From positions 3,720,001 to 3,784,000 of the forward strand of contig NZ_CP043641.1 in NCBI RefSeq assembly GCF_014217625.1: a DNA stretch of 64,000 bases, given 5' to 3'. Numbering within the stretch: the first letter of the stretch is position 1; each line of letters opens with the position of its first letter. The DNA is from Leifsonia shinshuensis. GTDB taxonomy: Bacteria > Actinomycetota > Actinomycetes > Actinomycetales > Microbacteriaceae. The translations under genes and the position numbers were made by a program. Of the stretch, positions 1,752 to 19,608 are shown piece after piece. Below the pieces are notes generated by a model that had not been told where the DNA came from, made no database searches, and saw nothing but the letters and a program-made list of their open reading frames with translations.

Positions 1752-1809
1752 ACAGGTAGGGACCGTTGTCGACGTTCGCCGCGTTGTGGTGAGCCCCTCC
1801 ACCATCGCC
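1752..1809 (-). promoter_or_regulatory. Candidate structured leader RNA (second class), upstream of ABC-F
   Basis: On the reverse strand a hairpin GGTG/CACC encloses the loop GAGGGGCT. A small second stem CGGC/GTCG follows, then CGACAACGGTCCCTACC. The loop GGGGCT can pair with GGTCCC downstream, giving a pseudoknot. The tail CCCTACC is complementary to GGTAGGGAG, which holds the ribosome binding site of the ABC-F gene. The same layout recurs before usp (17156) and eno (19509). The fold resembles the fluoride riboswitch, but the GATGG core is different. Ligand unknown. Confidence 0.6.
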
Positions 1810-1859
1810 GACCTCACACGATACTCCGGCCGAAACGAGGGGGCTAGAGTGACGATCAC

Positions 1860-1922
1860 GGCGATGGACCCCGCCGGAACGGCAACGTTCGAACCGCAAC
1901 GCACGCTGATGGGCCTACACGC
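1860..1922 (+). promoter_or_regulatory. Fluoride riboswitch (crcB motif), upstream of DUF211
   Basis: The leader shows the crcB-motif signatures in order: GGCGATGG with a closing CGCC, an extra hairpin GAACG/CGTTC, then AACCGC, then GCTGATGGGCCTAC. These match the pattern known for fluoride aptamers. The tail CCTACACG is largely complementary to CGTGGAGG (1932-1939), the ribosome binding site of the next gene, which suggests that fluoride binding frees translation. The stem before GCTGATGG is weak in this copy. Confidence 0.8.
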
Positions 1923-1945
1923 TTTCGTTAACGTGGAGGTCACTC

Positions 1946-2230
1946 ATGCCTATCCGCCGGCTTGCGATGGATGTCGACAAGGTCGTCGACCGCCCAGACA
2001 TGGTCAGCCTGGCCCGCGCAATCGAGCAGGTCTCCGGCGTCACCGCGGTGAACGTGACCGTCACCGAGATCGATGTGGAGACCGTCGGCACCGACATCAC
2101 GGTCGAAGGTGACGACATCGACACGGAAGCGCTGTTCCGCGCCATCGAGACGGTGGGGGCGGTCCTGCACAGCATCGACGAGGTCGTCGCTGGGGATCAC
2201 ATCATCGAGCGTGTGGCCCGCGTGCGCTGA
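1946..2230 (+). CDS. DUF211 family protein
   Basis: This 94-residue soluble protein matches the DUF211 family, known mainly from archaea. It has the family's start (MPIRRLAMDV), the central VNVTVTEIDVET, VEGDDIDTEAL and the closing SIDEVVAGD. The fold expected for the family is ferredoxin-like, often oligomeric; no biochemical role is established. It is directly preceded by a fluoride riboswitch and a GTGGAGGT ribosome binding site six bases before the ATG. The stop lies two bases before the next gene, a VIT-like membrane protein, so the two are co-transcribed and probably work together. Cation or fluoride handling is my inference from this context. Confidence 0.85.
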   Translation: MPIRRLAMDVDKVVDRPDMVSLARAIEQVSGVTAVNVTVTEIDVETVGTDITVEGDDIDTEALFRAIETVGAVLHSIDEVVAGDHIIERVARVR

Positions 2231-2232
2231 CC

Positions 2233-2778
2233 ATGACCGTCGCCGAGTTCGCCCGAACATTGCCGACTCTCCCGTTGGTGCTGGGCGTCACCGACGGGAT
2301 GCTGAACGCGCTCACCCTCGCCGGCGGGGCGCTCCTGCGGGACGGTGCTGGAAGCCTGACCCTCATGCTGGCCCTACGAGTTGGGATCGCCGCCTTGGTG
2401 ACTGCTGCGTTCACTGTGTTCGTCGCGGACTACGCTGAACGCCGTTCGGCTCTGGTGCGTGCAGCAAAGCAACTCAACATGACGGAGCCGGGACGGCTCG
2501 CCGCCACCAACCTGGGCCGCAAAGCGCTGCGGGAGTCATTCGTAGCGATGATCGTCGCCGCCGGTGCAAGCCTGGTAGGCGCCGGCGCTCCGCTTGCGGT
2601 CGGCGCAATTCTTCCCGGGCCCGCCTGGATTGTCGTGGCGCTCACGATCGCGTTGCTCGGCGGTTTCGGGTGGTTGCTCGGCGGGCTGCTCGCAGGGCGT
2701 CGCGGTTTCTGGGCGGCGTCGATGACGGTCGGTGGGGTGGCGGTGACCGCGATCGGCGTGTGGCTCAACATCGCCTGA
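2233..2778 (+). CDS. VIT1/CCC1-like membrane protein
   Basis: This 181-residue protein has about five hydrophobic segments. Its start, [19 protein letters not shown], resembles the first helix of VIT1/CCC1 vacuolar iron transporter relatives, which carry divalent metals across membranes. After two segments there is a soluble stretch of about 50 residues ([18 protein letters not shown]), where VIT proteins place a metal-binding region, then the remaining helices. It follows DUF211 by two bases and so falls under the same fluoride riboswitch. Export of a metal or relief of metal-fluoride stress is plausible but not shown. The family call is moderate because the sequence is short and divergent. 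Confidence 0.65.
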
Positions 2779-2817
2779 TTTCCTTCCGCACGGGATTCTC
2801 CGCTACGATCGCGGGAC

Positions 2818-2877
2818 GGCGATGGATCCCGCCGGAGCGACAGCTCGAACCGCCACGACGGCCGATGGTTCCTACTT
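2818..2877 (+). promoter_or_regulatory. Fluoride riboswitch (crcB motif), upstream of glnA
   Basis: The leader reads GGCGATGG, loop, CCGCC, then an extra hairpin (GAGCGACAGCTC), AACCGCC, GGCCGATGGTTCCTAC, matching the crcB motif. The tail CCTACTT is exactly complementary to AAGTAGG at 2894-2900, next to the GTG start of glnA. This supports control of translation by sequestering the ribosome binding site. Confidence 0.8.
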
Positions 2878-2906
2878 CTCCGACATCGACGGAAAGTAGG
2901 ACAGCT

Positions 2907-4331
2907 GTGTTCACTTCAGGTTCCGAAGCGCTCGGCTTCATCGCCGATACGAAGGTCCGATTCCTGGACGTGCGCTTCACTGACCTGCCCGGTGTGCAGC
3001 AGCATCTGACCGTCCCGGCAGACACGGTCGACGAAGCCTTCTTCACCGAAGGGATCGCCTTCGACGGTTCCTCGATCCGCGGCTTCGCGTCGATCCACGA
3101 GTCGGACATGCAGCTGATCCCGGATGTCTCGACCGCGTACATCGACCCGTTCCGTGTCGAGCGGACCCTGATCATGGTCTTCGACATCTACAACCCCCGC
3201 AATGGCGAGATCTACTCGAAGGACCCGCGTCAGGTCGCCAAGAAGGCGGAGAAGTACCTCGCCTCCACCGGCATCGCGGACACCGCGTTCTTCGCGCCGG
3301 AGGCCGAGTTCTACATCTTCGACGACGTGCGCTACGAGGTGAAGCAGAACTCCAGCTTCTACGCGGTGGACTCCGAGGAGGGCGCCTGGAACTCCGGCCG
3401 CGTCGAAGAGGGTGGCAACCTCGGCAACAAGACCCCGTACAAGGGCGGCTACTTCCCGGTGAGCCCGGTCGACAAGCAGGCGGACCTCCGCGACGACATC
3501 TCGCTGAAGCTGATCGACGCCGGTCTCATCCTGGAGCGCGCGCACCACGAGGTGGGCACCGGCGGTCAGGCGGAGATCAACTACCGCTTCGACACGATGG
3601 TCCACGCGGCGGACGACATCCTGAAGTTCAAGTACATCGTCAAGAACACCGCCGAGCTGTGGGGCAAGACCGCCACCTTCATGCCGAAGCCGCTGTTCGG
3701 CGACAACGGTTCGGGCATGCACACCCACCAGTCGCTGTGGAACGACGGCAAGCCGCTGTTCTACGACGAGGCCGGCTACGGCGGCCTCTCCGACATCGCC
3801 CGCTGGTACATCGGCGGCCTCCTCAAGCACGCCCCGGCGGTGCTGGCCTTCACGAACCCCACAGTGAACTCGTTCCACCGCCTGGTCCCCGGCTTCGAGG
3901 CCCCGGTCAACCTGGTCTACTCGGCCGGAAACCGCTCCGCCTCCATCCGCATCCCGATCACGGGCACCAACGCGAAGGCCAAGCGCATCGAGTTCCGCGC
4001 GCCCGACGCCTCCGGCAACCCGTACCTCGCGTTCGCCGCCCAGCTCATGGCCGGCCTCGACGGCATCAAGAACCGCATCGAGCCGCACGAGCCGGTCGAC
4101 AAGGACCTCTACGAGCTGCCGCCCGAGGAGGCCAAGAACATTCCCCAGGTTCCGGCATCGCTGGGCGAGGCCCTCGACGCGCTCGAGGCCGACCACGACT
4201 TCCTCACCGCAGGCGGCGTGTTCAGCCAGGAGCTCATCGAGACCTGGATCGAGTACAAGCGCGAGAAGGAGATCAAGCCCCTCGCCCAGCGTCCCCACCC
4301 GTTCGAGTACGAGCTCTATTACGGCGTCTGA
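2907..4331 (+). CDS. glnA: Glutamine synthetase, type I
   Basis: The 474-residue product is a full-length type I glutamine synthetase, which forms glutamine from glutamate, ammonia and ATP as a cytoplasmic dodecamer. Visible signatures include [45 protein letters not shown] and NRSASIRIP. It also has DLYELPPEE, which holds the tyrosine adenylylated in the regulated actinobacterial enzymes. I chose the GTG at 2907 because it follows AGTAGGA at good spacing and gives the family length; an upstream in-frame ATG at 2670 would run through the riboswitch. A fluoride riboswitch in its leader is unusual for glnA. The enzyme uses Mg or Mn and an acyl-phosphate intermediate, so fluoride sensitivity is plausible. 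It is likely an extra copy. Confidence 0.95.
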
Positions 4332-4381
4332 AATGACGGCCGCCATCACGACTTCTGCCGGAGTACCGGCAGAGCCAGAAC

Positions 4382-4461
4382 GCTCCCGCGCCGCTATGGG
4401 TTCGTCCACGGGCCCGGCGCGGGAGCCAGAGGGGGAACGTCCTTCGCCGAGGCGTTCCCCC
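4382..4461 (+). terminator. Two strong hairpins between glnA and the MFS gene
   Basis: Two perfect stem-loops fill the gap. The first has 12-bp arms, GCTCCCGCGCCG (4382-4393) and its complement (4415-4426). The second has 9-bp arms, GGGGGAACG (4431-4439) and CGTTCCCCC (4453-4461). No run of T follows either, so they may be attenuators or processing signals rather than a classical terminator. I see no fluoride-riboswitch core here. Confidence 0.5.
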
Positions 4462-4490
4462 TCGACCTGACACCTTCGGAGGATACGCCG

Positions 4491-6211: not shown

Positions 6212-6229
6212 TCCCGTCGGCGTCGGCCG

Positions 6230-8266
6230 TCAGGCCAACGCGGTCACCACGACGATGACCGCGAGCAGCGCGATCAGCATGTACGCCATGTAGGCGTCGA
6301 GCCGCCCGGACTGGAGCTTTCGTGCTGCCGCGACCACAGCACGGACCGCGGGAAGCAACGGGCGATAGAGGTAGCGCTGAACGACGTCGGTGACATCCAC
6401 GACGTATCCGAGCCGGGCGGACGCAGCGGCGGGCCGGCCCCCAGACGAGCCGGCATCCGGGCTCAGCTCCCGCAGCTCATGCCGAGTCATCAAGAGGGCG
6501 GCGAGGACCTTGCGGATCGGGTTGGCAAACCCGTAGGAGGTGTAGCCGGTGCGTCCTGGGGCCCCCTCAGATCCAGAGGTCCAAGCGGGTGTACGCCGTA
6601 CCCGCCAGAATCGGCGGCCGGAGAAAACGATGGCGACGACGATGGTGATCACGACGTAGGCGGGGATCACGATCCACAGTAACGTCGGCGAGAGAGCGGA
6701 GAAGTCCGCGAACACCGGTTGGAGAACCCACCCACCGGCCAGGGCGCCATTAGTTGTCGTCCCGGCGATCGGACGTATCCCCGCCGCGATCATCACGACC
6801 ACGAGCGGAGCCACGGCGGCGACTCCGAGACAGGCAGCAGCCAACAGGCCCGTCGCCGCCCGATGGGTCCACGACCGTTCAGCCTCGCGATGAGCGGGCT
6901 GAGGGTTCGCGGGCTTGCCGAACGCAGTGAGCCCGACCAGGCGTACGAAGGCAATCCCGGAGACACCGATCGTGAGGGCGACAAGGATGCCGCAGACCGC
7001 CATGCACAGCTGCAGCGGCAACTGCCCGACCCGAAACTGCTGCATCAGCGCCTCCAGGGTCATCCACTCGGAGGCGAACCCGGCTGTCAGCGGCATTCCG
7101 GCGAGGGTGAGTCCACCGACGACGAGCCCGACGCCAGTGAATGGCAATGTCCGTGCTACACCGCGAAGTTGGTCGAGGTCGGTGGTGCCGAGCCCCACCT
7201 CCACGGCGTTCGCGCTGATGAACAACAGCGACTTCGCCGCGGCGTGCGTGATCACCTGGAGCGTGCCGGCCAAGAGGCCCACCGCCACCAGCTGCTTCGA
7301 CCCGATCGTTTCGCCGACCAGCGCCACCGCGAAACCCGCACCGATCACCCCTGCGTTCTCGACGCTCGACCAGGCGATCAGGCCGCGCAGGTCCGCGTGG
7401 ACGGCGGCGTGGGCGATTCCGAGGATGGCCGACACCCCGGCGAGCAGGAGGACGGCGCAGGTCAGCCAGGTCGGTGGGGCGCCGAGGACGTCGAGTGTCC
7501 TCCACAGCCCGTAGAAGCCGGCGTTCACAGCCATGCCGGCCAGCAGCGCGCGGACAGGACCTGGAGCGGCCGAGTAGCTCGGCGGCAGCCAAACGTGGGC
7601 AGGGACGAGTCCCACTTTCACCGCAAATCCTGCGAGCAGGAGCGTGTAGCCGAGCGCCGTCCACGCGCCCGGATGCCGACCGAGCTCGGACAGGGCGATC
7701 GAACCGGATTGCGCGGCGAGGACGCCGCCACCGAGGAGGAGCAGCGCACCGCTGGTCTTGCTGAATCCGGCGGCGAGAACAGCTGCTCGCCCCCGCCCTG
7801 CCCTCCTGCGGTCGTAGCCGACGGCCAGATAGAAGGAGAAGCCCAGCAGCTCCCACCCGGCGAGAAGCGTGAACAGGTCGTTCGCGGTCAGCACCAGCCC
7901 GACGGCGAGCCCGACGAGCGCGGCCGCCGAGCCAAGCCGCGGTCTGGATGCTCCACCGCGGGTGAGGCCAACCAGAAAGGCAGGGACTGCGACGCCGAAG
8001 GTGATCACGAGGAACAACCCGGTCAATGAGTCGACATGGAGCCCGATCGCGCCGAGTGGCGGGGACGACTCGAGCGTGGTGGACTCGCCGGTTCCGGCAA
8101 GTGCACGGGCGCCGACGACGACAAGCAGCAGGGAAGCCAGGACGGAGAGCGTCCAGGACGTCGCCGCGGCGATGCGCGACCAGCGCCGAGCGTCGGAGTC
8201 CACGCGGAGCGCCAGCCAGCCGACGGCGCCGGCGGCGAGGAAGAGTAGGAGACCGAGCACCGTCAC
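6230..8266 (-). CDS. HyfB/HycC-like proton-conducting membrane subunit
   Basis: The 678-residue protein is a large antiporter-like subunit of the NuoL/HyfB family, with about 14-16 membrane helices. The conserved core is visible: LFTLLAGWELLGFSFYLAVG with the helix 5 Glu, the broken-helix lysines in GFAVKVGLVPAHVWLP, and ITHAAAKSLLF. In complex I and group 4 hydrogenases these subunits move H+ or Na+. It is the last gene of the operon and its GTG start overlaps the previous stop (GTGA) with AAGGAGA upstream. I prefer 8266 to upstream in-frame starts that lie inside the ferredoxin gene. It should form the membrane arm with the HyfF- and HyfC-like subunits. Confidence 0.88.
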   Translation of the reverse strand: MTVLGLLLFLAAGAVGWLALRVDSDARRWSRIAAATSWTLSVLASLLLVVVGARALAGTGESTTLESSPPLGAIGLHVDSLTGLFLVITFGVAVPAFLVGLTRGGASRPRLGSAAALVGLAVGLVLTANDLFTLLAGWELLGFSFYLAVGYDRRRAGRGRAAVLAAGFSKTSGALLLLGGGVLAAQSGSIALSELGRHPGAWTALGYTLLLAGFAVKVGLVPAHVWLPPSYSAAPGPVRALLAGMAVNAGFYGLWRTLDVLGAPPTWLTCAVLLLAGVSAILGIAHAAVHADLRGLIAWSSVENAGVIGAGFAVALVGETIGSKQLVAVGLLAGTLQVITHAAAKSLLFISANAVEVGLGTTDLDQLRGVARTLPFTGVGLVVGGLTLAGMPLTAGFASEWMTLEALMQQFRVGQLPLQLCMAVCGILVALTIGVSGIAFVRLVGLTAFGKPANPQPAHREAERSWTHRAATGLLAAACLGVAAVAPLVVVMIAAGIRPIAGTTTNGALAGGWVLQPVFADFSALSPTLLWIVIPAYVVITIVVAIVFSGRRFWRVRRTPAWTSGSEGAPGRTGYTSYGFANPIRKVLAALLMTRHELRELSPDAGSSGGRPAAASARLGYVVDVTDVVQRYLYRPLLPAVRAVVAAARKLQSGRLDAYMAYMLIALLAVIVVVTALA

Positions 8267-9057
8267 CGTCGCGTCTCCTTCCGGGCGGGCAGCCGGTCGA
8301 GGGCGAGCAGGATCCCGTGCAGGATCGCGAACGGGGAGGCCGGCGAGCCGGGCACCCACACGTCGACGTCGAGGAGGCCGCCGATGCCGCCGGACGTGGC
8401 GTACCCGCTGCCGACGATCCCGCCGCTGATGGCATCCACCCCGGTAGCGATCACGACGGTCGGGGTCGGCATGGCGTCCAGGGTGGTGAGGAGCGCGTCG
8501 GTCATCCCGTGGGCGCCGAGCCCGGTGACGAGGAGGATGTCGGCGTGACGCGGGCTGGCGGTGAAGAACAGGCCGAGGCGGTGGAGATCGTAGACGGGGT
8601 TGGTGAGCGCCTGCACCTCCCACTCGTCCGACCCGTCCGAGCCGGTGTCGACGTGGCGCAGGTGCACGGATTGGCGCAGCCGCCGCACCCGGGTGGCGAG
8701 CTCGGCGCGAACGGCACGGAGAGCGTCCTCGGTCTCGGCGGGTTCGCCGACGACGATGCTGCGACGGGTGAGATCGGCGACGTCGGAGCCCTCCCGCCAC
8801 GCGAAGGTGTGCGGCGCGATGAGCGGGCACCGGCCGCAGAGGATGCACCGGCCGCGGTCGAGTCGCAGCCTCCCGTCGTCCCCGCGGTAGATGGCTTCGG
8901 TGGGGCACGCATCGATGGCGCGATCCGTGTCCCGGTCGTCCGCCTCGGCCGAGGTGATGTCGATGGTGCCTGCGAACCCGTCACCGTATTCGTCTGGTCG
9001 TTGCGGCCAACGGGTGGTGATCACTCCGTCGCGGAGTCCTCGTGTTGCCCACGGCAT
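8263..9057 (-). CDS. Ferredoxin plus NuoB/HycG-like small subunit, lacking proximal-cluster cysteines
   Basis: This 264-residue fusion has an N-terminal ferredoxin-like part. It keeps four cysteines, DACPTEAI near residue 51 and CILCGRC near residue 71, enough for one [4Fe-4S] cluster. A NuoB/HycG-like domain follows, recognisable from FFTASPRHADILLVTGLG, SGGI and VDVWVPGSP. In hydrogenases and complex I four cysteines of this domain hold the proximal (N2-type) cluster. Here all are gone: the CxxC site reads SDEW, the second site reads TGVDA, and PGCPP has become PGSPA. The gene directly follows the large subunit and overlaps hyfB by four bases. A classical electron path to a NiFe site therefore seems impossible. 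Confidence 0.85.
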   Translation of the reverse strand: MPWATRGLRDGVITTRWPQRPDEYGDGFAGTIDITSAEADDRDTDRAIDACPTEAIYRGDDGRLRLDRGRCILCGRCPLIAPHTFAWREGSDVADLTRRSIVVGEPAETEDALRAVRAELATRVRRLRQSVHLRHVDTGSDGSDEWEVQALTNPVYDLHRLGLFFTASPRHADILLVTGLGAHGMTDALLTTLDAMPTPTVVIATGVDAISGGIVGSGYATSGGIGGLLDVDVWVPGSPASPFAILHGILLALDRLPARKETRR

Positions 9058-12044: not shown

Positions 12045-12045
12045 C

Positions 12046-12738
12046 TCAGCCTCGCAACCGGTCGAGCGGGATGGTGGACAGCGTGTTCGACCGGCCGTGA
12101 TGGATGCGGATGAGCACCCCGAAGACGACGACGGCGACGAGTAGGTCGAACAGAAACGCGACTTCGAGGATGAGCGGCAGTCCGGCCGCGACGACGAGAC
12201 TCGCCATAGAGACCCCGTTCTCGAGGGAGAAGAACCCGATGGCCTGGCTGACCACGTCCCTCCGCAGGATCATCAGCACGAACGAGACCAGTACGACGGC
12301 CATCGACAGGCTCAATGCTGTCGACGGGAGTACCGGTGAGTCGATGTGAAGTGCCCCGACAGCGAAGAACCCGAACGCTGCCACGATGAGCGCGATCACC
12401 ACCTCGCTGGCCACACCGACCGCGCCGCTTCCGGCGATCTCGGTTCCGGAGCGGCGCAGCTGCCGGAGCATCACCAGCGGGACGATCACCACCTTCAGCG
12501 CGAAAGAGATCGCGGCCAACGCGTAGAGTTCGGGGATGCCACGGCCGGCAGCCACCACGAAGGCGAGCACGCTGACGGCGGCCGACTGCATGGCGTATAG
12601 CCCCACCTGGGAGCGCAGCATCGCCGCGCGCAACATCCCGAATTCGAGCAGCAGGACGATCACGGCGACCGTGTTCGCGGTGCCCTCGTATACGCTCGGC
12701 ACGCTCTGCGCCGCAGCCGTCGCGGACAGGGACAGCAT
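12046..12738 (-). CDS. HyfE-like membrane subunit
   Basis: The 230-residue protein has about seven hydrophobic helices and resembles HyfE, which is related to MrpC/NuoK-type subunits. The stretch AIGFFSLENGVSMASLVVAAGLP (as pieces FFSLENG and MASLVVAAG) is the best family landmark, with the buried Glu of the NuoK type. I chose the ATG at 12738, preceded by GGAGGTGG, which overlaps the stop of the HyfC-like gene. The longer reading frame would start inside that gene. Confidence 0.85.
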   Translation of the reverse strand: MLSLSATAAAQSVPSVYEGTANTVAVIVLLLEFGMLRAAMLRSQVGLYAMQSAAVSVLAFVVAAGRGIPELYALAAISFALKVVIVPLVMLRQLRRSGTEIAGSGAVGVASEVVIALIVAAFGFFAVGALHIDSPVLPSTALSLSMAVVLVSFVLMILRRDVVSQAIGFFSLENGVSMASLVVAAGLPLILEVAFLFDLLVAVVVFGVLIRIHHGRSNTLSTIPLDRLRG

Positions 12739-13697
12739 CAGCCACCTCCGAGGTAGAGGGTCAGGATGGCGAGCACCGCGAGCAGGAACGCGGCCGCGAC
12801 GAACTCGGTGATTTTGAACAGCCGGAGCTTGGCGAACGTGTTGTCGATCACCGCGACGACGACACCGAGGGCGGTGGCCTTCACCAGCAGAGCGATGATT
12901 GCGAGCACCACGAGGTCCAGGCGTCCGCTCGGTGCGAGACCCCACGGCGCCACGAAAACGTTGAGCAGGATCGTGTAGAAGATCAGCTGCTTCGCCGCCG
13001 ATCCCCACTTCAGCAAGGCCAGGTAGGGCCCGGAGTGCTCGAACGACCTGGCCTCCTCGATCATGCCGAACTCGATCGTGCCGGTATGGGTCTCAACGGG
13101 GATGCGGGCCGTCTCGAACAGGATCACCATGAACAACGCCGCCGAAGCCAGAAGGTGCGCCGGCCGGATGATCTGCTCCGGCCCGCTGGTGACGGTCGCG
13201 CCGAGCACGTACGGCAGATCGGTCGTGGTGAGGATCGCGACCGTGAATACGACCAGCAGCACGACCGGCTCTGTGATCGCCCCGAAGGTCTTGGCACGGC
13301 TGGCGCCGAGCTGTGCGTACGGGTCGCCAGTGGACGCCGCGGCGACGGCGACGACGAAGCTGGCGAGGGCGAGAATGAAGCCGCCGCCGAGGATGTCGCC
13401 CATATTCCCCAACGGCAGCCCGAAGGTGGTCAGCACGGGGATCAGCAGCGGGACGGTGAGGTAGCAGGCGAACGCGATCACCGGACCGGCGAGGAAGAAC
13501 CAGCCGGCGCCTGCCGGGGCGAGAGCCTCCTTGCCGAACAGCTTCGCGAGGTCGAAGTAGGGCTGCAGGATTCTTGGGCCTCGGCGCCCCTGCATCCGGG
13601 CTTCGATGCTCGCGATGATCCCGCTCACGCCCGGCGCGGCGCCGGCGATCGTGAGGACTTGAAGGAATTGGATGACGGGTGCGGAGAGTTCGATCAC
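12738..13697 (-). CDS. HyfC/NuoH-like membrane subunit
   Basis: The 319-residue protein belongs to the NuoH/HycD/HyfC family, which anchors the peripheral arm to the membrane. Typical segments are RRGPRILQPYFDLAKLFGKE, FETARIPVETHTGTIEFGM and EEARSFEHSGPYLALLKWG. About eight membrane helices are expected. The GTG at 13697 follows GGGAGC; the longer reading frame from 13868 would run through the riboswitch. The GTG overlaps the stop of a 32-codon leader ORF, suggesting translational coupling. It is the first structural gene of the six-gene operon. Confidence 0.88.
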   Translation of the reverse strand: MIELSAPVIQFLQVLTIAGAAPGVSGIIASIEARMQGRRGPRILQPYFDLAKLFGKEALAPAGAGWFFLAGPVIAFACYLTVPLLIPVLTTFGLPLGNMGDILGGGFILALASFVVAVAAASTGDPYAQLGASRAKTFGAITEPVVLLVVFTVAILTTTDLPYVLGATVTSGPEQIIRPAHLLASAALFMVILFETARIPVETHTGTIEFGMIEEARSFEHSGPYLALLKWGSAAKQLIFYTILLNVFVAPWGLAPSGRLDLVVLAIIALLVKATALGVVVAVIDNTFAKLRLFKITEFVAAAFLLAVLAILTLYLGGG

Positions 13698-13792
13698 TGT
13701 GCTCCCGCCGCGGTCGTTGCAGCCACGGTCGGAGGTGGATCGGAGCGAGGGCTCTGCCCGGTGCTCTCGTCCTCGTTCCAATGCGCGTGCAT
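13694..13792 (-). CDS. Small leader ORF coupled to the HyfC-like gene
   Basis: A 32-codon ORF starts at the ATG at 13792 just after the fluoride riboswitch and ends in a TGA that overlaps the GTG of the HyfC-like gene (GTGA). The product begins MHAHWNEDESTGQ and has no known domain. Its start lies just behind the hairpin CCTGT/ACAGG of the riboswitch tail, so the riboswitch would act on this ORF first and on the operon through coupling. It could be a real small subunit or only a leader peptide. Confidence 0.5.
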   Translation of the reverse strand: MHAHWNEDESTGQSPRSDPPPTVAATTAAGAQ

Positions 13793-13813
13793 GCCTGTTC
13801 CCATCTCTGGTCA

Positions 13814-13874
13814 CAGGGGCTATCAGCGCGTAGGCGGTTCGGACGAGGGTCGTCCCGGCGAGCTCCATCGCCGG
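13814..13874 (-). promoter_or_regulatory. Fluoride riboswitch (crcB motif), upstream of hydrogenase-like operon
   Basis: On the reverse strand the sequence reads GGCGATGGAGCTCGCC, an added hairpin GGGACGA/TCGTCC, GAACCGCC, then GCGCTGATAGCCCC. This follows the crcB motif, with GATAGC replacing the usual GATGGC. The tail CCTGT can pair with ACAGG next to the start of the leader ORF. It sits between the second mutS-like gene and the six-gene operon, so the operon has its own fluoride control even if read through from upstream. Confidence 0.75.
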
Positions 13875-13886
13875 ATGCTCAGTGAA

Positions 13887-15422
13887 TCACGGCTCTTCGA
13901 ACGCGGTCAAGGACATCCGTTCGGCGGGTCGCGGATCCTTCTCGTCGCCGAATACGCGTTGGTAGACGTCCCAGCCGAAGCTGGTGGAGAGGGGTTCGCC
14001 TTCGGTCAGGGTGAAGTCGCGGCCGCCGTCCTCTGCGCGATGGGCGCGCAGGAAGAGCGTGTCCTCGCGGTTTTCCTCGCGCAGCCGGTGCGCGAAGTCG
14101 AACAGGTGGGTCACGAAGGCGACGGTCACCGCGCGATCCCGGAACGCGTGGACGACGTGACGAGAGATCTCCGAGCCTTCCCGTTCATTGGTGGAGGCGA
14201 ACGACTCGTTGAAGAGCACCATCGCCCCCGGTGTCACGGCGTCGACGATCCGACTCATCCGGCCGAGCTCCTCATCCAGCTTGCCGCTGACGAGCTGCTT
14301 GTCCTCCTCGCGCTTGAAGTGGGTGAAGATGCCGGTGCGGACACCGGTGCTCAACGCCGTGGCGGGGGCGAAGAGTCCGCACTGGGTGAGCAGCTGGGCC
14401 TGGCCCAGGCTGCGCAGGAACGTGGACTTGCCGCCGCGGTTCGCTCCGGTGATCACGACCAGAGGGGTCGCTGTGGCATCGATCGTGTTGCCGACGGCGG
14501 GCCGGCCGCCGATCAGCACGAGAGCGATGTCGTAGAGCTCGTCTGCCGCGAATCCGGCCGTGTCGGTCAGTGTGGGGATTGTCGTCGGTTCGCCCTGCGC
14601 GGTCAGCGCGTCGTGGAGGTTGATGGCTCCGAGGTAGAACGCGAGCTCGCGTTGCAGCATCGTCAGGAAGCTCTTGATGTGATCGGTCGACTGGATCAGC
14701 GCGTTCGCGACGAGGTCGACTCCGCGGTCCTGGAGCTCGTGGAGCGCGCTGAAGCCGGCCTCGTCCCGGTCCGGGATGGTCATCGTGTGTGCGGGGTGGG
14801 TGAACCCCAGCCGCTGCAGCAGCGGGATACGGCGGCCGGAGGGGCGGCGCAGGGTGATCCTTGTAGGCTTGTTCGCCTCTCCGAGGTGGGCGCTGCTGAG
14901 CACTCCGTGCCGGAATCGCAACTGGGCAAGGTGCTCGTCGATCTCCTCGAAGTACTCGTCCGTCAACTCGGACTGCAGCATCTGGAACAGGGTCGTGAAC
15001 GCCGGCGACCGGAAGGCGGGTGCGTTTTCGTCGGCGAGCAGCCGCAGACTCCGCAGGTAGCGGATGTACACCTCCATCAGCTGGCTGCCGTGATGAACCA
15101 TCCCGGACGGGGAGGACAACCCCCAGCTGTAGATGCGTTTCGCCTCCGCCAGCGCTTGGACCGGCAGCGCGTAGAGCGCGCGGATTGCGTCCGGGTTCGC
15201 GAGTGCGTCGGTGAGGGCCTGCTGGCGGTGACGGATCTGGTCCGCGTCGGTCAACGGCTGGTGGAGGGCCGCGGTCGCGGTCTCGGCGAGGAATGCGTCG
15301 TCGGCTGCCATCGCGCGCACGAGGACGCCGAGTTCGAGGTCGGCGAACCGGTCGTGCTGGTTCTCATCCGGATGATCGATGAGAACGAAGTCGGCGTCGG
15401 TGAAGAGCAGGTGGGCCTTCAT
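13887..15422 (-). CDS. MutS-related ATPase, second of a pair
   Basis: The 511-residue protein has a C-terminal MutS-type ABC ATPase: Walker A TGANRGGKST near residue 335 and Walker B MVLFNESFAST. Upstream is a helical clamp/lever-like region. The N-terminal mismatch-recognition domain of MutS is absent, so classical mismatch repair is unlikely. The gene overlaps its upstream paralogue by four bases. MutS-like genes are among those reported behind fluoride riboswitches, but their role there is not established. The ATPase is presumably cytoplasmic and probably forms a heterodimer with its neighbour. Confidence 0.85.
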   Translation of the reverse strand: MKAHLLFTDADFVLIDHPDENQHDRFADLELGVLVRAMAADDAFLAETATAALHQPLTDADQIRHRQQALTDALANPDAIRALYALPVQALAEAKRIYSWGLSSPSGMVHHGSQLMEVYIRYLRSLRLLADENAPAFRSPAFTTLFQMLQSELTDEYFEEIDEHLAQLRFRHGVLSSAHLGEANKPTRITLRRPSGRRIPLLQRLGFTHPAHTMTIPDRDEAGFSALHELQDRGVDLVANALIQSTDHIKSFLTMLQRELAFYLGAINLHDALTAQGEPTTIPTLTDTAGFAADELYDIALVLIGGRPAVGNTIDATATPLVVITGANRGGKSTFLRSLGQAQLLTQCGLFAPATALSTGVRTGIFTHFKREEDKQLVSGKLDEELGRMSRIVDAVTPGAMVLFNESFASTNEREGSEISRHVVHAFRDRAVTVAFVTHLFDFAHRLREENREDTLFLRAHRAEDGGRDFTLTEGEPLSTSFGWDVYQRVFGDEKDPRPAERMSLTAFEEP

Positions 15423-16978
15423 GATGCGATCCGTTCGGTGATCCGGGCGGTGGACAGTCCGTAGCGGTCAGCGAGGGCGGTCGCGTGTGCCAGGCCGTCG
15501 GCGGGCCGCCGTTCGATGTGGAAGGTGCGCCGGGTCACGTCGTCCGGGTCGACCTCGGCGACCATGCTGACCGTCTCCGGACCGAGGGCGGTCAGCTCGT
15601 CAATGAACGTCACGTAGACGCCCATCGCGCCCTCATCGATCAACGTGCGGAGGATCCTCTCGCCGAGCTCGAGCGCGTCCTGGGCGGTGGTCGAGGTGAA
15701 CGTCTCGTTCATGATCACGATGCTGCGATCGTCAGCCGAGGAGATGATCGCGTGCGCCCGCACCAGGTCGTCCTCGAGTTTGCCGGCCAGGTTGGTGAGA
15801 TCTTCCTGCCGTTCGAAGTGAGTGTAGAGCCGGTCGAACAGCGGGAGGACCGCCCGGCGCGCCGGGACGGGGAGCCCGAGTGCGGCGAGGTAGTGCAGCT
15901 GCCCGAAGGACCGTGCGAACGTGGTCTTGCCGCCCTGGTTGGCGCCGGTGACTACGAGGAACTGCTCCCCGCGCCGGAGCTGGAAATCGTTGGTGACCAG
16001 CGGCGTCGCGTCCGTCTGTCGCTTAAATGCCAGCGCGAGGTCGTAGCCGCCGGTGACGTTGCTTTCGCGTTCGTCGACGACACGGGGCACGCAGACCGGC
16101 AGTCTGTTGCCTGAGGCGTGGGCCAGGTAGTCCTGGTAGGTGAAGTAGAACTGCAGCTCACGGTCGAACCGGGCGAGCGTCGCGGACTGGAACGTCGCGT
16201 GCTCATTGCAGAACTCGGCCAACGCCGCGAATGGCTCCGGGAACACGTCAGCCACCAGGCCCAGGATGCCCGCCTCGACATGGTTCATGTCGACCGTGTC
16301 GATGAACTTCGTCCGGTGCGTTCCGACGTCGGACTGCCGGAACTTCGCGAAGGTCGCAGCGACGTCGGCGCTGAAGTCCGTCTCGCCGCCGTATGGGATC
16401 ACGGTGACGCTGTTGCCGTCGATGAGGAACTCGTACTCGACCTCGTCCAGCTGTTCGGCCACACGTTCGGCGTCCTCCGCCAACCGAGTGAATCCCTCCG
16501 AGGCGACGTAGCGATCCAGATGGTCCTGGAACACCAGCATTCCCGCCGACTCGAGCGGTGCGTCCATGAGCCCGCGGGCGAGGTTGCCGGTTAGGGTCAC
16601 ATAGTGAGTGACGGCGTCCAGGAACACCCGTTGTCGTTGCAGCACGTATCGCAGTTTGTCGACCAGGGCGAGCTGGGTGCGCAGTTCCCGCATGCCCTCG
16701 GCGAAGGCCCGCCCACTCTGCTGCACGCGCTCGTGCGCCAGGTCGGCGAGCACCGCATGACGGAACTCCACCTGCTCCAACGTGGTCAGCGGCGTCCAGT
16801 AGAACGGCCGCAGCTCGTAGTCGTCCGTGCCGACCAAGCGTTCGATCACCAGATCGAGGGCAAGGTCGGGGAAGCAGTCCGGTTGCGTTCTTGCCAACTC
16901 CATGGAGGCGGCGTCGGTGCCGGCTGGGCCGGCGGCCGGAAACAGGATGCTCGTCAGTTGTGCGCGGTTCTCTTCCAC
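15419..16978 (-). CDS. MutS-related ATPase, first of a pair
   Basis: This 519-residue paralogue has Walker A TGANQGGKTT near residue 345 and Walker B SIVIMNETFTSTT. It shares the lever/clamp-like middle part and also lacks a mismatch-binding domain. The GTG start at 16978 follows AGGTAGGAGG. That site is complementary to the tail of the fluoride riboswitch just upstream, so both mutS-like genes should be induced by fluoride. They are only distantly similar to each other outside the ATPase core, which suggests distinct partners rather than a recent duplication. Confidence 0.85.
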   Translation of the reverse strand: MEENRAQLTSILFPAAGPAGTDAASMELARTQPDCFPDLALDLVIERLVGTDDYELRPFYWTPLTTLEQVEFRHAVLADLAHERVQQSGRAFAEGMRELRTQLALVDKLRYVLQRQRVFLDAVTHYVTLTGNLARGLMDAPLESAGMLVFQDHLDRYVASEGFTRLAEDAERVAEQLDEVEYEFLIDGNSVTVIPYGGETDFSADVAATFAKFRQSDVGTHRTKFIDTVDMNHVEAGILGLVADVFPEPFAALAEFCNEHATFQSATLARFDRELQFYFTYQDYLAHASGNRLPVCVPRVVDERESNVTGGYDLALAFKRQTDATPLVTNDFQLRRGEQFLVVTGANQGGKTTFARSFGQLHYLAALGLPVPARRAVLPLFDRLYTHFERQEDLTNLAGKLEDDLVRAHAIISSADDRSIVIMNETFTSTTAQDALELGERILRTLIDEGAMGVYVTFIDELTALGPETVSMVAEVDPDDVTRRTFHIERRPADGLAHATALADRYGLSTARITERIAS

Positions 16979-17018
16979 GTGGTCCTCCTACCTGGACGCG
17001 ATGCAGAGCAAGGGTGTT

Positions 17019-17068
17019 CAGGTAGAAGCCATCAGCGGGGACCCGCGGTTTCGGTGAGCTTCATCACC
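17019..17068 (-). promoter_or_regulatory. Fluoride riboswitch (crcB motif), upstream of mutS pair
   Basis: This is the clearest copy. On the reverse strand it reads GGTGATGAAGCTCACC, GAAACC, a GCGG/CCGC hairpin and TGATGGCTTCTACC. The loop GAAGC pairs exactly with GCTTC to form the pseudoknot. The tail CTACCTG is complementary to CAGGTAGG, which holds the ribosome binding site AGGAGG. Confidence 0.9.
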
Positions 17069-17155
17069 GTTTGGGAGCACAACGATACACCCCCCGGCGG
17101 TGTGGTTGAACTCGTCGCACCTTCTGGCACACTGTGAGGTGACGATGAACTCGTC

Positions 17156-17212
17156 GCGGTGGTGGGGCTCACCGCGAACAACCTCGGCGCCGCCGACAAC
17201 AGTCCCTATCTC
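17156..17212 (+). promoter_or_regulatory. Candidate structured leader RNA (second class), upstream of usp-gpm-crcB
   Basis: A GCGGTG/CACCGC stem encloses the loop GTGGGGCT. It is followed by AACAACC, a TCGGC/GCCGA stem and CAACAGTCCCTATCTC. Loop bases GGGGCT can pair with AGTCCC (pseudoknot). The tail CTATCTC matches GAGATAGG at 17236-17243, which carries the usp ribosome binding site. The layout is that of the fluoride riboswitch with a changed core. Because two crcB genes lie in the operon, fluoride is the first ligand to test. Confidence 0.65.
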
Positions 17213-17251
17213 GCCAGACGCGCGCGCCCGCCGCCGAGATAGGAGACGTCA

Positions 17252-17770
17252 ATGTCCGATCCCCACACCCCGGACCAGAACCGCTCCGTCATCCTCGTAG
17301 GTGTCGAACACGGGTTGGCCGACGCCGTCCTGCTGGAAGCAGCCCATATCGCCCGAGACCTGGACTGCGAACTCATCTGCGCCCACGTCGACCTCGGCCG
17401 ATATACGGTCGACGAGAACCCGGACGGATCGGTGCATTCGCTCCCCTTCGACCCCGACCTCCCGGAACTCGATGAGGACGTATTCGACACCGAACTCGCC
17501 GCACACATCGAGAAGACCCTCGCAAAGACCGGCGTCAACTGGAGCAAGCGCGAACTCGCCGGCGACCCCGCCCATGCGCTCGGACATCTCGCCGAGACGC
17601 TGAACGCCCGCATGATCGTCGTCGGCACCCACGAAGCCGGCCTGCGCTCGGGCCTTCGCGAATTCTTCCGCTCCTCTGTCGCTGTCCACCTCGCGCACCG
17701 ACAGCACCGGCCGGTGCTGGTCGTCCCCCTGTCGCCGGTGACCGACGGCCGGGCGCTGCCGTGGGAGTGA
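17252..17770 (+). CDS. Universal stress protein family
   Basis: The 172-residue cytoplasmic protein has the UspA fold. SVILVGVEHGLADAVLLEAA gives the first strand and helix, MIVVGTHEAG gives the nucleotide-loop strand, and RPVLVVPLSP the last strand. The G-2x-G-9x-G-S/T ATP-binding signature is only partly kept (GTHEAGLRSGLREFFRSSV). It opens the usp-gpm-crcB-crcB operon behind a structured leader. Usp genes are known members of fluoride regulons; the molecular role is unclear. Confidence 0.85.
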   Translation: MSDPHTPDQNRSVILVGVEHGLADAVLLEAAHIARDLDCELICAHVDLGRYTVDENPDGSVHSLPFDPDLPELDEDVFDTELAAHIEKTLAKTGVNWSKRELAGDPAHALGHLAETLNARMIVVGTHEAGLRSGLREFFRSSVAVHLAHRQHRPVLVVPLSPVTDGRALPWE

Positions 17771-18522
17771 CACGGCTCTACGAGGTCTACCTGCTTCGGC
17801 ACGGTGAGAGCACCGCGAACGCGCAAGGACTTTTCACCGGTGTGCTCAACCCGCCGTTGACCGAGCGTGGGCGTATTGAAGCGCGAGACGCCGGACTGTT
17901 GCTGCAAGCGGCGGGCATCAGGCCTGTATCGATCTTCGCGTCGGCGCTCGAGCGGACCATCGCCACGGCACTCATCGTCAAGGATGTCCTCGGCCTTGAC
18001 GCGGACCTGCGCATCGAGTGGCGGTTGAACGAACGCAACTACGGTGCGCTTACGGGCCAGTCCAAGACAGCGGTCGCTCGCCGCTATGGAGTGAGCCAAT
18101 TCCTCACCTGGCGACGCTCGTTCCTCACCGCGCCGCCACCGATGAGCGCCGAACAGCTCGAGGCGATCCGGTCCGAAGAGCCCTTCCGGTCACTCCCGCA
18201 GGCCGCTCTGACCCCGACGGAGTCGCTCCATGACGTCGGACGGCGGATCCTGCCCTTCGTCGCCGAGCAGCTGTATCACGCGCTGGTCGAAGAATCGCCG
18301 GTGATCGTGGTCGGTCATGGGAACTCGCTTCGCGCCCTGTGCATGATCATCGAGGGCCTCACCCCGCGGCAGGTCGAGCAGCTGGCGATTCCGACCGGTC
18401 AGCCCTTGCGGTATCGTTTCGATCTCCGGTCCGGAACGCCCGCTCTCGTAGCACGCGACTACCTCGACCCCGACGCCGCTGTCGAAGCCACCGAACTCCT
18501 CAACCGGCAAGGGGGCACCTAG
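17767..18522 (+). CDS. Phosphoglycerate mutase-like histidine phosphatase
   Basis: The roughly 251-residue protein has the histidine-phosphatase signature LLRHGESTANAQGLFTG with the phosphorylated His. It also has NERNYGALTG, typical of 2,3-bisphosphoglycerate-dependent phosphoglycerate mutase, and VIVVGHGNSLRAL with the second catalytic His. It probably interconverts 3- and 2-phosphoglycerate, one step before enolase. I use the GTG at 17767, which overlaps the usp stop (GTGA); a GTG six bases earlier is equally possible. Enolase blocked by fluoride causes its substrate to accumulate, so a mutase and an enolase in one regulon make sense. Confidence 0.85.
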   Translation: MTRLYEVYLLRHGESTANAQGLFTGVLNPPLTERGRIEARDAGLLLQAAGIRPVSIFASALERTIATALIVKDVLGLDADLRIEWRLNERNYGALTGQSKTAVARRYGVSQFLTWRRSFLTAPPPMSAEQLEAIRSEEPFRSLPQAALTPTESLHDVGRRILPFVAEQLYHALVEESPVIVVGHGNSLRALCMIIEGLTPRQVEQLAIPTGQPLRYRFDLRSGTPALVARDYLDPDAAVEATELLNRQGGT

Positions 18523-19053
18523 GTGTCGCCTGCGCGAACAGAACCAACCATGAACCCAGACCCCAACGACACTCTCCCCATCGACTCAGACATCGAAGTC
18601 GATGACACGCGCACCCGCACACCGCGGCCCGTCCACCTGCGCTGGCGCTACATCGGGCTGGTCTTCGCCGGCGGAGCCATTGGCACGGCCGTTCGCTACC
18701 TGTTGTCGTTGAGCATCCCTGCTTGGAACGGCCTGCCGGTCGCGACGTTCGGCATCAATGTCACCGGGGCGTTCTTGCTCGGCTGGCTTCTTGAGACCCT
18801 GTCCCGCGGCGGACCAGACGAGGGCAGGCGCAGAGCCATCCGTCTCTTCGCCGGAACCGGGATCATGGGGGGCTACACGACGTACAGTTCGTTTGCGGTC
18901 GACACCGACGGGCTCATCGCTACCGCGCACCTCGGCGACAGCATCCTCTACGCCTTGGCCACCGTGCTCGTCGGCGCCGCCGCATCGGTCGGAGGCATCG
19001 CGCTCGGCGCAGCCATCCACCGAGCCCGTGCGCGGAAGGAGCGCGCGCGATGA
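18523..19053 (+). CDS. crcB: CrcB/Fluc fluoride channel subunit 1
   Basis: The 176-residue protein has four membrane helices preceded by a 40-residue acidic N-terminal tail that is longer than usual. Fluc signatures are present: FAGGAIGTAVRYLL, FGINVTGAFLLGWL with the pore Asn, and GIMGGYTTYSSF with the central Na+-site/Phe-box region. Fluc proteins are dual-topology fluoride channels that expel F-. Two different copies encoded side by side, as here, usually make an antiparallel heterodimer. The GTG start follows AGGGGG. Confidence 0.95.
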   Translation: MSPARTEPTMNPDPNDTLPIDSDIEVDDTRTRTPRPVHLRWRYIGLVFAGGAIGTAVRYLLSLSIPAWNGLPVATFGINVTGAFLLGWLLETLSRGGPDEGRRRAIRLFAGTGIMGGYTTYSSFAVDTDGLIATAHLGDSILYALATVLVGAAASVGGIALGAAIHRARARKERAR

Positions 19054-19427
19054 TCGGTCTGCTCGTTCTCGGGGTCGCCCTCGCCGGCGGCCTCGGCGCC
19101 ACCTGCCGCCTCGTCCTCGACGGAATCCTGAAGGCACGCGTGCGCGTCGCGTACCCGCTCGGCACCACCGTGATCAACATCACCGGCTCTTTCCTGCTCG
19201 GCCTGGTGACCGGCCTCGCGGTCACCCACCTCCTCCCACCGGAGTGGCGGGCGATCATCGGGGTCGGCTTCATCGGCGGCTACACCACCTTCAGCACCGC
19301 CAGCTTCGAGACAGTCCGGCTCGCCCAGGAAGGCCGCTACGCGGCCGCGGTCTCCAACGGCTTCGGGATGCTCGCAGGCGCCCTCTTGGCCGCCGGTCTG
19401 GGGCTCTGGCTCGGCGGCATGTTCTGA
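19050..19427 (+). CDS. crcB: CrcB/Fluc fluoride channel subunit 2
   Basis: This 125-residue four-helix protein overlaps the first crcB by four bases (ATGA). It has LGATCRLVLDG, VINITGSFLLGL and GFIGGYTTFSTASFE, the pore Asn, TTFST and Phe residues of Fluc. It lacks the N-terminal tail of subunit 1. Together they should form the membrane fluoride exporter of the cluster. It is the last gene of the usp operon. Confidence 0.95.
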   Translation: MIGLLVLGVALAGGLGATCRLVLDGILKARVRVAYPLGTTVINITGSFLLGLVTGLAVTHLLPPEWRAIIGVGFIGGYTTFSTASFETVRLAQEGRYAAAVSNGFGMLAGALLAAGLGLWLGGMF

Positions 19428-19508
19428 CAGGTCGCTGAGAATCACCACGCGAGACACTTTCGCTCTCGAGATTTCTCTGGCACACTCCTGATCAGCGCTT
19501 CGGCGCTT

Positions 19509-19561
19509 CGGCGGTGGGGCTCGCCGACACCAACCTCGATGCCGACAACGGTCCCTATCTC
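19509..19561 (+). promoter_or_regulatory. Candidate structured leader RNA (second class), upstream of eno
   Basis: A perfect TCGGCG/CGCCGA stem encloses GTGGGGCT. It is followed by CACCAACC, a short TCG/CGA stem and CAACGGTCCCTATCTC. GGGGCT can pair with GGTCCC. The tail CTATCTC is complementary to the GAGATAGG at about 19593, which holds the eno ribosome binding site. It matches the leaders of usp and ABC-F in every element. A TCTGGCACACT box lies upstream both here and before usp, perhaps a shared -10 region. Confidence 0.65.
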
Positions 19562-19608
19562 AAGCGATAACGCATGCCCGCGCGCATGCCCTGAGATAGG
19601 AGAAACCG

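What the first reader, a model, noticed from the sequence alone, without database searches (positions are those of the whole stretch)
1752..19561. A second conserved pseudoknotted leader RNA in a fluoride regulon
Three leaders (1752-1809 minus, 17156-17212 plus, 19509-19561 plus) share a hairpin with loop GNGGGGCT, an ACC-rich joint, a second short stem, CGACAACRGTCCCTAYC, and a loop-tail pairing GGGGCT/RGTCCC. The plan is that of the fluoride riboswitch (hairpin loop pairing with a 3' tail across a second stem), but the GATGG and TGATGGC cores are changed. One copy controls the operon with both crcB genes. It may be a variant fluoride sensor, a different ion sensor, or a described class such as the Li+ (nhaA) or Na+ (DUF1646) riboswitches, whose exact consensus I cannot recall.
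Basis: partly seen in the sequence, partly recalled or inferred. Interest (0 to 1): 0.85.

Follow-up and report, generated by a model that had tools for sequence, protein, structure and literature searches.

The report
Actinobacterial variant of the fluoride riboswitch
Three messenger-RNA leaders here belong to a common but uncatalogued actinobacterial version of the fluoride-sensing riboswitch in which several core letters have changed, mostly in a linked way, while the fold and the fluoride-protection genes it controls stay the same.

Summary
In detail: three leaders share a hairpin with loop GNGGGGCT, a second hairpin, the tail CGACAACRGTCCCTAYC and a loop-tail pseudoknot. None reaches an Rfam 15 cut-off; the closest related match is Fluoride (11.4 bits, cut-off 34). 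Covariance models find the motif in 54 of 398 genomes of its family and 59 of 394 of its class, with strong covariation in both stems. Without core indels it lies on the fluoride aptamer: the reverse Watson-Crick pair A6-U38 becomes G6-C38 (162 of 164 distinct copies), U41 mostly C, G39 mostly A, while the A40-U48 linchpin and the pseudoknot stay. CrcB (fluoride channel) lies downstream in 122 of 164 leaders, enolase in 18; stress protein, phosphatase or EttA-like genes in some. Ordinary fluoride riboswitches precede crcB in relatives, and fluoride elements lie divergently beside two of the three leaders (one scoring below cut-off). The tail can instead pair with the ribosome-binding site, so ligand should switch translation on. 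Most likely it is a fluoride-sensing variant subclass of the fluoride riboswitch, not a separate ion sensor; ligand binding is untested. Li+ and Na+ riboswitches are not supported.

The parts
1755..1810 (-). Variant aptamer 1 (leader of the EttA-like ABC-F gene). P1 1803-1800/1791-1788, loop GAGGGGCT 1799-1792, P2 1781-1778/1773-1770, pseudoknot 1797-1792/1764-1759, C38 at 1768
   Evidence: sequence; R1 68.4 bits; same loop GAGGGGCT before EttA in L090:4344, L310, L312
1735..1761 (-). Expression platform 1: tail CCCTACC 1761-1755 pairs with GGTAGGG 1741-1735 that carries the ribosome-binding site
   Evidence: SD unpaired probability 0.02 free, 0.90 when the pseudoknot strands are kept from pairing
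98..1726 (-). EttA-like ABC-F ATPase gene (542 aa)
   Evidence: NCBIfam PRK11819 EttA 633 bits over cut-off 599; a second EttA model (TIGR03719) 618.5 bits, below its cut-off 806.75
17152..17210 (+). Variant aptamer 2 (leader of the USP - His-phosphatase - CrcB - CrcB operon). P1 17154-17161/17170-17177, loop 17162-17169, P2 17184-17188/17192-17196, C38 17197, pseudoknot 17164-17169/17201-17206
   Evidence: R1 81.1 bits
17205..17245 (+). Expression platform 2: CCTATCTCG 17205-17213 pairs with CGAGATAGG 17235-17243, covering the SD AGGAG 17241-17245
   Evidence: SD unpaired 0.20 to 0.74
17252..19427 (+). Operon: USP 17252-17770, histidine phosphatase 17761-18522, CrcB 18523-19053, CrcB 19050-19427
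   Evidence: Pfam PF00582, PF00300, PF02537, PF02537
19504..19559 (+). Variant aptamer 3 (enolase leader). P1 19508-19513/19522-19527, loop 19514-19521, P2 19536-19538/19543-19545, C38 19546, pseudoknot 19516-19521/19550-19555
   Evidence: R1 79 bits; Fluoride model 11.4 bits
19554..19602 (+). Expression platform 3: CCTATCTCA 19554-19562 pairs with TGAGATAGG 19592-19600, covering SD AGGAG 19598-19602
   Evidence: SD unpaired 0.22 to 0.64
19609..20982 (+). Enolase gene (457 aa)
   Evidence: Pfam PF00113, PF03952
17016..17077 (-). Canonical fluoride riboswitch, divergent from variant 2, before a MutS-domain gene pair (15419-16978, 13887-15422)
   Evidence: RF01734 51 bits; PF00488
1851..1924 (+). 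Weak canonical-type fluoride element, divergent from variant 1, before a DUF211 gene (1946-2230)
   Evidence: RF01734 22.0 bits (cut-off 34), E 2.9e-4; DUF211
2809..2881 (+). Canonical fluoride riboswitch before a glutamine synthetase gene
   Evidence: RF01734 38 bits; Gln-synt_C
13807..13881 (-). Canonical-type fluoride element before NADH-dehydrogenase-like / proton-antiporter-like genes
   Evidence: RF01734 32.6 bits (below cut-off)

Best explanation
The three leaders carry an actinobacterial variant subclass of the fluoride riboswitch aptamer. The RNA makes the same fold: P1 hairpin, P2 hairpin, and a pseudoknot between the P1 loop and the 3' tail. Several core bases are exchanged, mostly in a linked way: the long-range reverse Watson-Crick pair A6-U38 is replaced by G6-C38, G39 mostly by A, U41 mostly by C, and 13-42 is a Y-R pair, while U7 (mostly) and the linchpin A40-U48 are kept. 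Since the literature describes the three Mg2+ around F- as held by backbone oxygens, the changed bases need not remove the pocket. Bound fluoride (inferred) stabilises pseudoknot and linchpin; the tail then cannot pair with the ribosome-binding site, and translation of crcB, enolase and the other protection genes goes on. Shown here by computation: fold, covariation, homology, gene context, competing helix. Inferred: fluoride as ligand, and the direction of switching.
For: Core alignment without indels. In 168 distinct hits read by alignment column, with no letter forced by me (five hits dropped before: four coding-like, one cut by masked bases), 6-38 is G-C 162, A-U 4, G-U 1, A-C 0, unreadable 1; the four A-U are two hybrids and two canonical elements. 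In the 105 found by covariance model alone: G-C 100, A-U 3, G-U 1, unreadable 1. In 26 distinct canonical-type elements of relatives (one a hybrid): A-U 24, A-C 2. A40-U48: A-U 167, G-U 1 of 168. Pair 13-42: U-A 86, U-G 41, C-G 35, C-A 0, gap 6. P1/P2 covary. Homology both ways: R1 scores six canonical elements at E 2.6e-5 to 6e-3; RF01734 scores three variant copies at E 1.3e-5 to 8e-4. Genes: CrcB within 2.5 kb of 122 of 164 leaders, enolase 18; either in 64 of 77 with at least 2 kb downstream. Canonical elements precede CrcB-matching reading frames in 16 of 31 loci. Competing helix: own 7.05 Watson-Crick pairs, permuted 5.54 +- 0.14. Pairs A6-U38 and A40-U48 and the Mg2+/F- cluster: PMC11586693 passages.
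Against: No binding data. U41A in the Bacillus cereus fluoride riboswitch abolishes response and U41 is called highly conserved (PMC11077080, passage); 161 of 168 hits have C there. 7 of 199 relatives carry both forms, which could be read as two signals. 15 of 164 leaders have none of the query genes in the DNA held, eight of them with at least 1.9 kb. Minimum-energy folds of the free leaders do not show the aptamer fold: P1 is missing in all three and P2 appears only in the EttA leader (the centroid of the USP leader does show P1); with the pseudoknot strands blocked P1 returns in all three and P2 in two.
Confidence: 0.78

Rival explanations
1. The same fold has been re-tuned to a ligand other than free fluoride (another anion, a fluoro-complex, or a metal ion), used as a second signal in the same stress regulon.
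For: Several core residues change together and stay conserved; U41 is sensitive to mutation in a canonical RNA; 7 of 199 relatives carry both forms.
Against: The downstream genes are the fluoride channel and enolase (enolase's sensitivity to fluoride is recalled); either form is found before crcB operons; U41C also occurs with A6-U38 before a CrcB gene (L214).
Confidence: 0.12
2. It is simply an ordinary fluoride riboswitch that Rfam misses because its seed and threshold do not cover Actinobacteria; the base changes have no functional meaning.
For: Single changes at positions 38, 39, 41, 42 occur in canonical-type elements nearby (L002, L200, L214, L219).
Against: The changes occur as a block: no hit with A6 and C38 among 168, and G6 goes with C38 in 162 of the 163 hits with a readable G6. 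This differs from the best explanation only in whether the subclass deserves a name.
Confidence: 0.08
3. The leaders are protein-binding sites or translational operators with no small ligand.
For: No ligand has been tested; the motif is compact.
Against: Homology to a known aptamer, near-invariant linchpin and pseudoknot, and a competing helix of the kind known for fluoride riboswitches.
Confidence: 0.02

Closest known systems
Fluoride riboswitch, crcB motif (Rfam RF01734)
   Same: Two hairpins, loop-tail pseudoknot, 8-nt P1 loop, tail length without indels, linchpin A40-U48, overlap of the tail with the expression platform, crcB and universal-stress-protein genes downstream
   Different: A6-U38 is G6-C38; UGAUG becomes CAACR in most; all three window copies and all 20 copies in 18 scanned loci fall below the gathering score
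Li+ riboswitches (nhaA-I, nhaA-II) and Na+ riboswitch (DUF1646)
   Same: Compact ion-sensing leaders (recalled)
   Different: No match to them up to E = 10 at the three leaders; downstream genes differ
Natural riboswitch variants with changed binding cores (guanine, guanidine-IV variants; title and start of abstract seen in listings: PMC9295807, PMC9788692)
   Same: Same scaffold, changed core residues
   Different: There evidence for another ligand is claimed in title or abstract; here the gene context still points to the parent ligand

Membership tests
Fluoride riboswitch RF01734 | Score at or above the Rfam gathering cut-off (34 bits) | tested here: not met
   0 of 3 window copies; 11.4 bits at best; 0 of 20 copies in 18 loci; best variant score seen 27.3 bits
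Fluoride riboswitch RF01734 | P1 and P2 hairpins with P1-loop/3'-tail pseudoknot | tested here: met
Fluoride riboswitch RF01734 | A6-U38 reverse Watson-Crick pair as A-U | tested here: not met
   G-C in 162 of 164 distinct variant copies, G-U 1, unreadable 1; replaced by another pair rather than broken. The geometry itself is not testable here
Fluoride riboswitch RF01734 | Conserved UGAUG before the pseudoknot strand | tested here: not met
   CAACR in most variants
Fluoride riboswitch RF01734 | Linchpin A40-U48 | tested here: met
   104 of 104 distinct rows; 167 of 168 distinct hits
Fluoride riboswitch RF01734 | Leader of fluoride-resistance genes | tested here: met
   CrcB in 122 of 164 leaders, enolase in 18
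Fluoride riboswitch RF01734 | Aptamer tail competes with an expression platform | tested here: met
   (computed only)
Fluoride riboswitch RF01734 | Binds F- with Mg2+ | not testable with these tools
   needs probing or calorimetry
Li+ (nhaA) or Na+ (DUF1646) riboswitches | Match to the Rfam library's models | tested here: not met
   cmscan up to E = 10 at each leader listed only Fluoride, Mu-gpT-DE and TB11Cs2H1

The most novel reading that the evidence does not exclude
The linked exchange of A6-U38, G39 and U41 has given the fluoride fold a different specificity, so that many Actinobacteria read a second signal of fluoride stress (another anion, a fluoro-complex or the Mg2+ state) next to fluoride itself, with divergent leaders of the two kinds sharing one control region.
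Probability: 0.12. Interest if true: 0.85.

Novelty: new variant of a known kind. Interest (0 to 1): 0.62.

Why it matters
The fluoride riboswitch is a model RNA whose core letters are described as highly conserved. Here about one in seven sampled genomes of one bacterial class (59 of 394) carries a homologous RNA with several of those letters exchanged, below the Rfam cut-off wherever I tested it. It would add a control element for crcB in Streptomyces, Nocardia, Nocardioides, Curtobacterium and others, suggest new genes of the fluoride regulon (EttA-like ABC-F, a protein family without a Pfam match), and give a natural test of which bases the Mg2+/F- site really needs, including a tertiary pair that changed on both sides.

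Tried and rejected
Rejected: a described Rfam class; Li+/Na+ riboswitches; chance. Hits dropped after reading: L287, L313, L314, L315 (coding-like), L316/L038 (core cut by masked bases), L255 and L296 (canonical elements in another class), L275:400 (canonical), and hybrids with A6 and U41C: L276/L256, L137:3453, L084:7380, L100:4637, L052:8255. Two class hits have a variant tail but an irregular loop: L264 (one base short) and L285 (no readable loop); they are kept in the genome count and left out of the gene count. From the pattern scan, L078, L102, L136 and L151 (16-23 bits) are taken as chance.

My first regular expression for canonical elements failed and was replaced by table strands. The variant counts used a pattern that forced G at position 6, so I recounted by alignment column and use those numbers. 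The gene caller often picks wrong frames in these GC-rich genomes; gene counts for the variant therefore rest on tblastn, where 11 of 176 distinct hits were dropped beforehand (hybrids, canonical, false, cut, irregular loop) and one more lacked 150 nt of downstream DNA. In the class search the fetched hits were classified by script and the deviating ones printed; in the family search only hits under 46 bits were all checked so. A pattern search for hybrids in the class gave 1 of 394 genomes.

Literature: nine searches answered listed no paper that reports this variant, judged from titles, starts of abstracts and passages; the library holds open-licence papers only, and the two 2012 fluoride riboswitch papers I asked for are not in it.
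Full report
OBSERVATION. The three leaders exist as described, within a few bases of the stated places: 1755-1810 (-), 17152-17210 (+), 19504-19559 (+). They precede an EttA-like ABC-F gene, an operon of universal stress protein, histidine phosphatase and two CrcB proteins, and enolase. A scan of the window against Rfam 15 gives two canonical fluoride riboswitches (17016-17077 minus, 51 bits; 2809-2881 plus, 38 bits) and nothing at the three leaders. With permissive filters the only related match at a leader is Fluoride at the enolase leader, 11.4 bits against a cut-off of 34; at the other two there is none, though one search shows part of a neighbouring divergent fluoride element, complete at 22.0 bits.

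COMPARATIVE EVIDENCE. A model of the three copies (R1) matches them at 68-81 bits by construction; the next hit in the window's own 4.6 Mb genome is a weaker fourth copy 2.2 kb outside the window (31.8 bits). In 199 relatives, 24 genomes carry matches of 40 bits or more. From 39 copies I built R2. It finds matches at E <= 1e-5 in 55 of 398 genomes of the family and 60 of 394 of the class. After checking hits (class: those fetched, by script; family: those under 46 bits) one genome drops from each, leaving 54 of 398 (one cut by masked bases) and 59 of 394 (two with irregular loops). In 396 genomes drawn from the phylum, 11 have a match; the two outside the class are canonical fluoride elements. 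One of the 84 is a hybrid (L137:3453) and one lies in a MAG labelled Trueperaceae (L097).

FOLD. On 111 aligned copies (104 distinct) the proposed structure pairs in 97.7% of cells; 159 cells change on both sides against 38 +- 5 in shuffles, 0 of 500 shuffles reach any of the five measures, and slid structures pair in 33-48%. In the smaller set of 30 distinct rows two of the five measures are not exceptional (11 and 111 of 500). These alignments were fitted to a model with P1 and P2, which leans them towards that structure. P1 and P2 show many pair types. Most pseudoknot pairs do not vary in those rows, but the top pair 13-42 is U-A 86, U-G 41, C-G 35, C-A 0 (gap 6), and pair 11-44 is G-U 159, G-C 5, A-U 2, U-U 1 (gap 1) in 168 distinct hits, which include two hybrids and two canonical elements.

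RELATION TO THE FLUORIDE APTAMER. The loop of 8 and the tail align without indels. In Thermotoga petrophila numbering, the fluoride aptamer has a reverse Watson-Crick pair A6-U38 and a reverse Hoogsteen linchpin A40-U48 (PMC11586693, passages; the same pairs in other numbering for Bacillus cereus in PMC8004769, passages). Among 26 distinct canonical-type elements of the relatives (29 rows; two of the 31 left out as not fluoride-like; one is a hybrid), 6-38 is A-U 24 and A-C 2. Among 168 distinct hits read by column it is G-C 162, A-U 4, G-U 1, A-C 0, unreadable 1; the four A-U are the two hybrids and two canonical elements. In the 105 of these found by covariance model alone it is G-C 100, A-U 3, G-U 1, unreadable 1. 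Over the 168, position 39 is A 152, G 16; 41 is C 161, U 6, G 1; 7 is U 157, A 10, gap 1; A40-U48 is A-U 167, G-U 1. A-U to G-C in this geometry is the change known for tRNA pair 15-48 (recalled). Hybrids with A6-U38 but U41C exist (four in held loci; one more in 394 class genomes), so the two forms are joined by intermediates. Each model recognises the other form weakly: R1 scores six canonical elements at E 2.6e-5 to 6e-3 and a hybrid at 1.4e-6; RF01734 scores three variant copies at 22.9-27.3 bits, E 1.3e-5 to 8e-4. None of the 20 variant copies in 18 scanned loci reaches the Rfam cut-off. The RNA is therefore a homologue, yet outside the family as Rfam defines it.

GENES. By tblastn of up to 2.5 kb downstream of 164 distinct leaders with at least 150 nt of it, 122 show CrcB, 43 DUF190, 21 universal stress protein, 18 enolase, 16 histidine phosphatase, 5 EttA, 5 an MFS protein, 3 a 261-residue family without a Pfam match; 15 show none of the queries. 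Of the 77 with at least 2 kb, 64 have CrcB or enolase. Canonical elements precede CrcB-matching reading frames in 16 of 31 loci, among them a second place in this genome (L003), and MutS-domain genes in 10 (frames there are rough). MutS and formate hydrogen lyase were listed for the crcB motif in 2010 (PMC2864571, passages). Of 199 relatives, 24 have the variant at 40 bits or more, 18 have RF01734 over its cut-off, 7 have both. Either form before the same kind of operon points to one signal, fluoride.

SWITCH. The tail CCYAYC... pairs with a downstream GRTAGG... that holds the ribosome-binding site. Over 104 distinct copies the best own pairing averages 7.05 Watson-Crick pairs, against 5.54 +- 0.14 with permuted partners (41 permutations); of 83 copies with a TAGGR site, 65 have exactly the complementary dinucleotide before it and 18 do not; 21 have no such site. 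In the window, keeping the pseudoknot strands unpaired raises the chance that the binding site is open from 0.20 to 0.74, 0.22 to 0.64 and 0.02 to 0.90; the canonical glutamine synthetase leader goes from 0.23 to 0.49. As the pseudoknot and linchpin use the same tail, ligand binding should switch translation on. A 2026 study found nearly no transcription-terminating fluoride riboswitches in Actinomycetota (PMC13273304, passage), in keeping with control of translation.

AGAINST. Nothing here shows fluoride binding. In Bacillus cereus U41A is unresponsive (PMC11077080, passage), and the variant mostly has C there. Minimum-energy folds of the free window leaders are only mildly better than shuffles (z -0.9 to -1.6) and show other pairings in place of P1 (the centroid of the USP leader does show P1); P1 returns in all three, and P2 in two, when the pseudoknot strands are blocked. 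This fits an OFF state but is no independent support for the aptamer. A changed specificity stays open, at about one chance in eight.

VERDICT. A real, widespread and, as far as I could search, undescribed variant subclass of the fluoride riboswitch in Actinomycetes; most likely a fluoride sensor.

Noticed in passing
window 98-1726 (-); L090:4344, L310, L312: An EttA-like ABC-F gene follows the variant RNA directly in at least three genera, with loop GAGGGGCT in these leaders; a translation factor in the fluoride regulon is unexpected.
   Followed up: partly
genome 3717716-3717777 (+), L008; L047, L139, L308; second gene in L048: A 260-residue cysteine-containing protein family, 113 proteins found and no Pfam match for the query, lies behind the variant RNA in three genera; candidate new fluoride-regulon protein.
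   Followed up: partly
window 1851-1924 (+) and 1946-2230 (+): Weak canonical fluoride element (22 bits) before a DUF211 gene, divergent from variant 1.
   Followed up: partly
window 2809-4331 (+): Canonical fluoride riboswitch before a glutamine synthetase gene.
   Followed up: partly
window 8263-13881 (-): Respiratory-complex / hydrogenase-like genes (NADHdh, Proton_antipo_M, Oxidored_q6 domains) behind a canonical-type element of 32.6 bits, beside MutS-domain genes.
   Followed up: partly
L052:8255 (-), L084:7380 (-), L100:4637 (-), L137:3453 (+), L276: Hybrid elements: A6 and U38 kept, U41 changed to C, pseudoknot GGGGCT/GGTCCC; possible evolutionary intermediates.
   Followed up: partly
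L115:4031 (-), L115:4644 (+), L132:6704 (-): Mycobacterium copies without crcB or enolase in the downstream stretch searched; behind L132 lies a PPE-like reading frame (named from recall).
   Followed up: no
L091, L103, L113, L141, L150, L153 and others: Nocardia, Amycolatopsis and related copies seem to carry an extra short hairpin in the joint between P1 and P2 (read by eye).
   Followed up: no
L101:2162 (+): Jiangella: variant RNA upstream of a PAP2-domain frame, with a second variant and two canonical elements within 6 kb.
   Followed up: no
L042, L043, L044 (contigs of G002; two match records of Leifsonia aquatica H1aii): Three separate crcB/enolase regions with variant leaders in one genome.
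   Followed up: no
window 25761-28547 (-): A long reading frame with a phage-integrase domain downstream of the fluoride genes; the region may be mobile.
   Followed up: no
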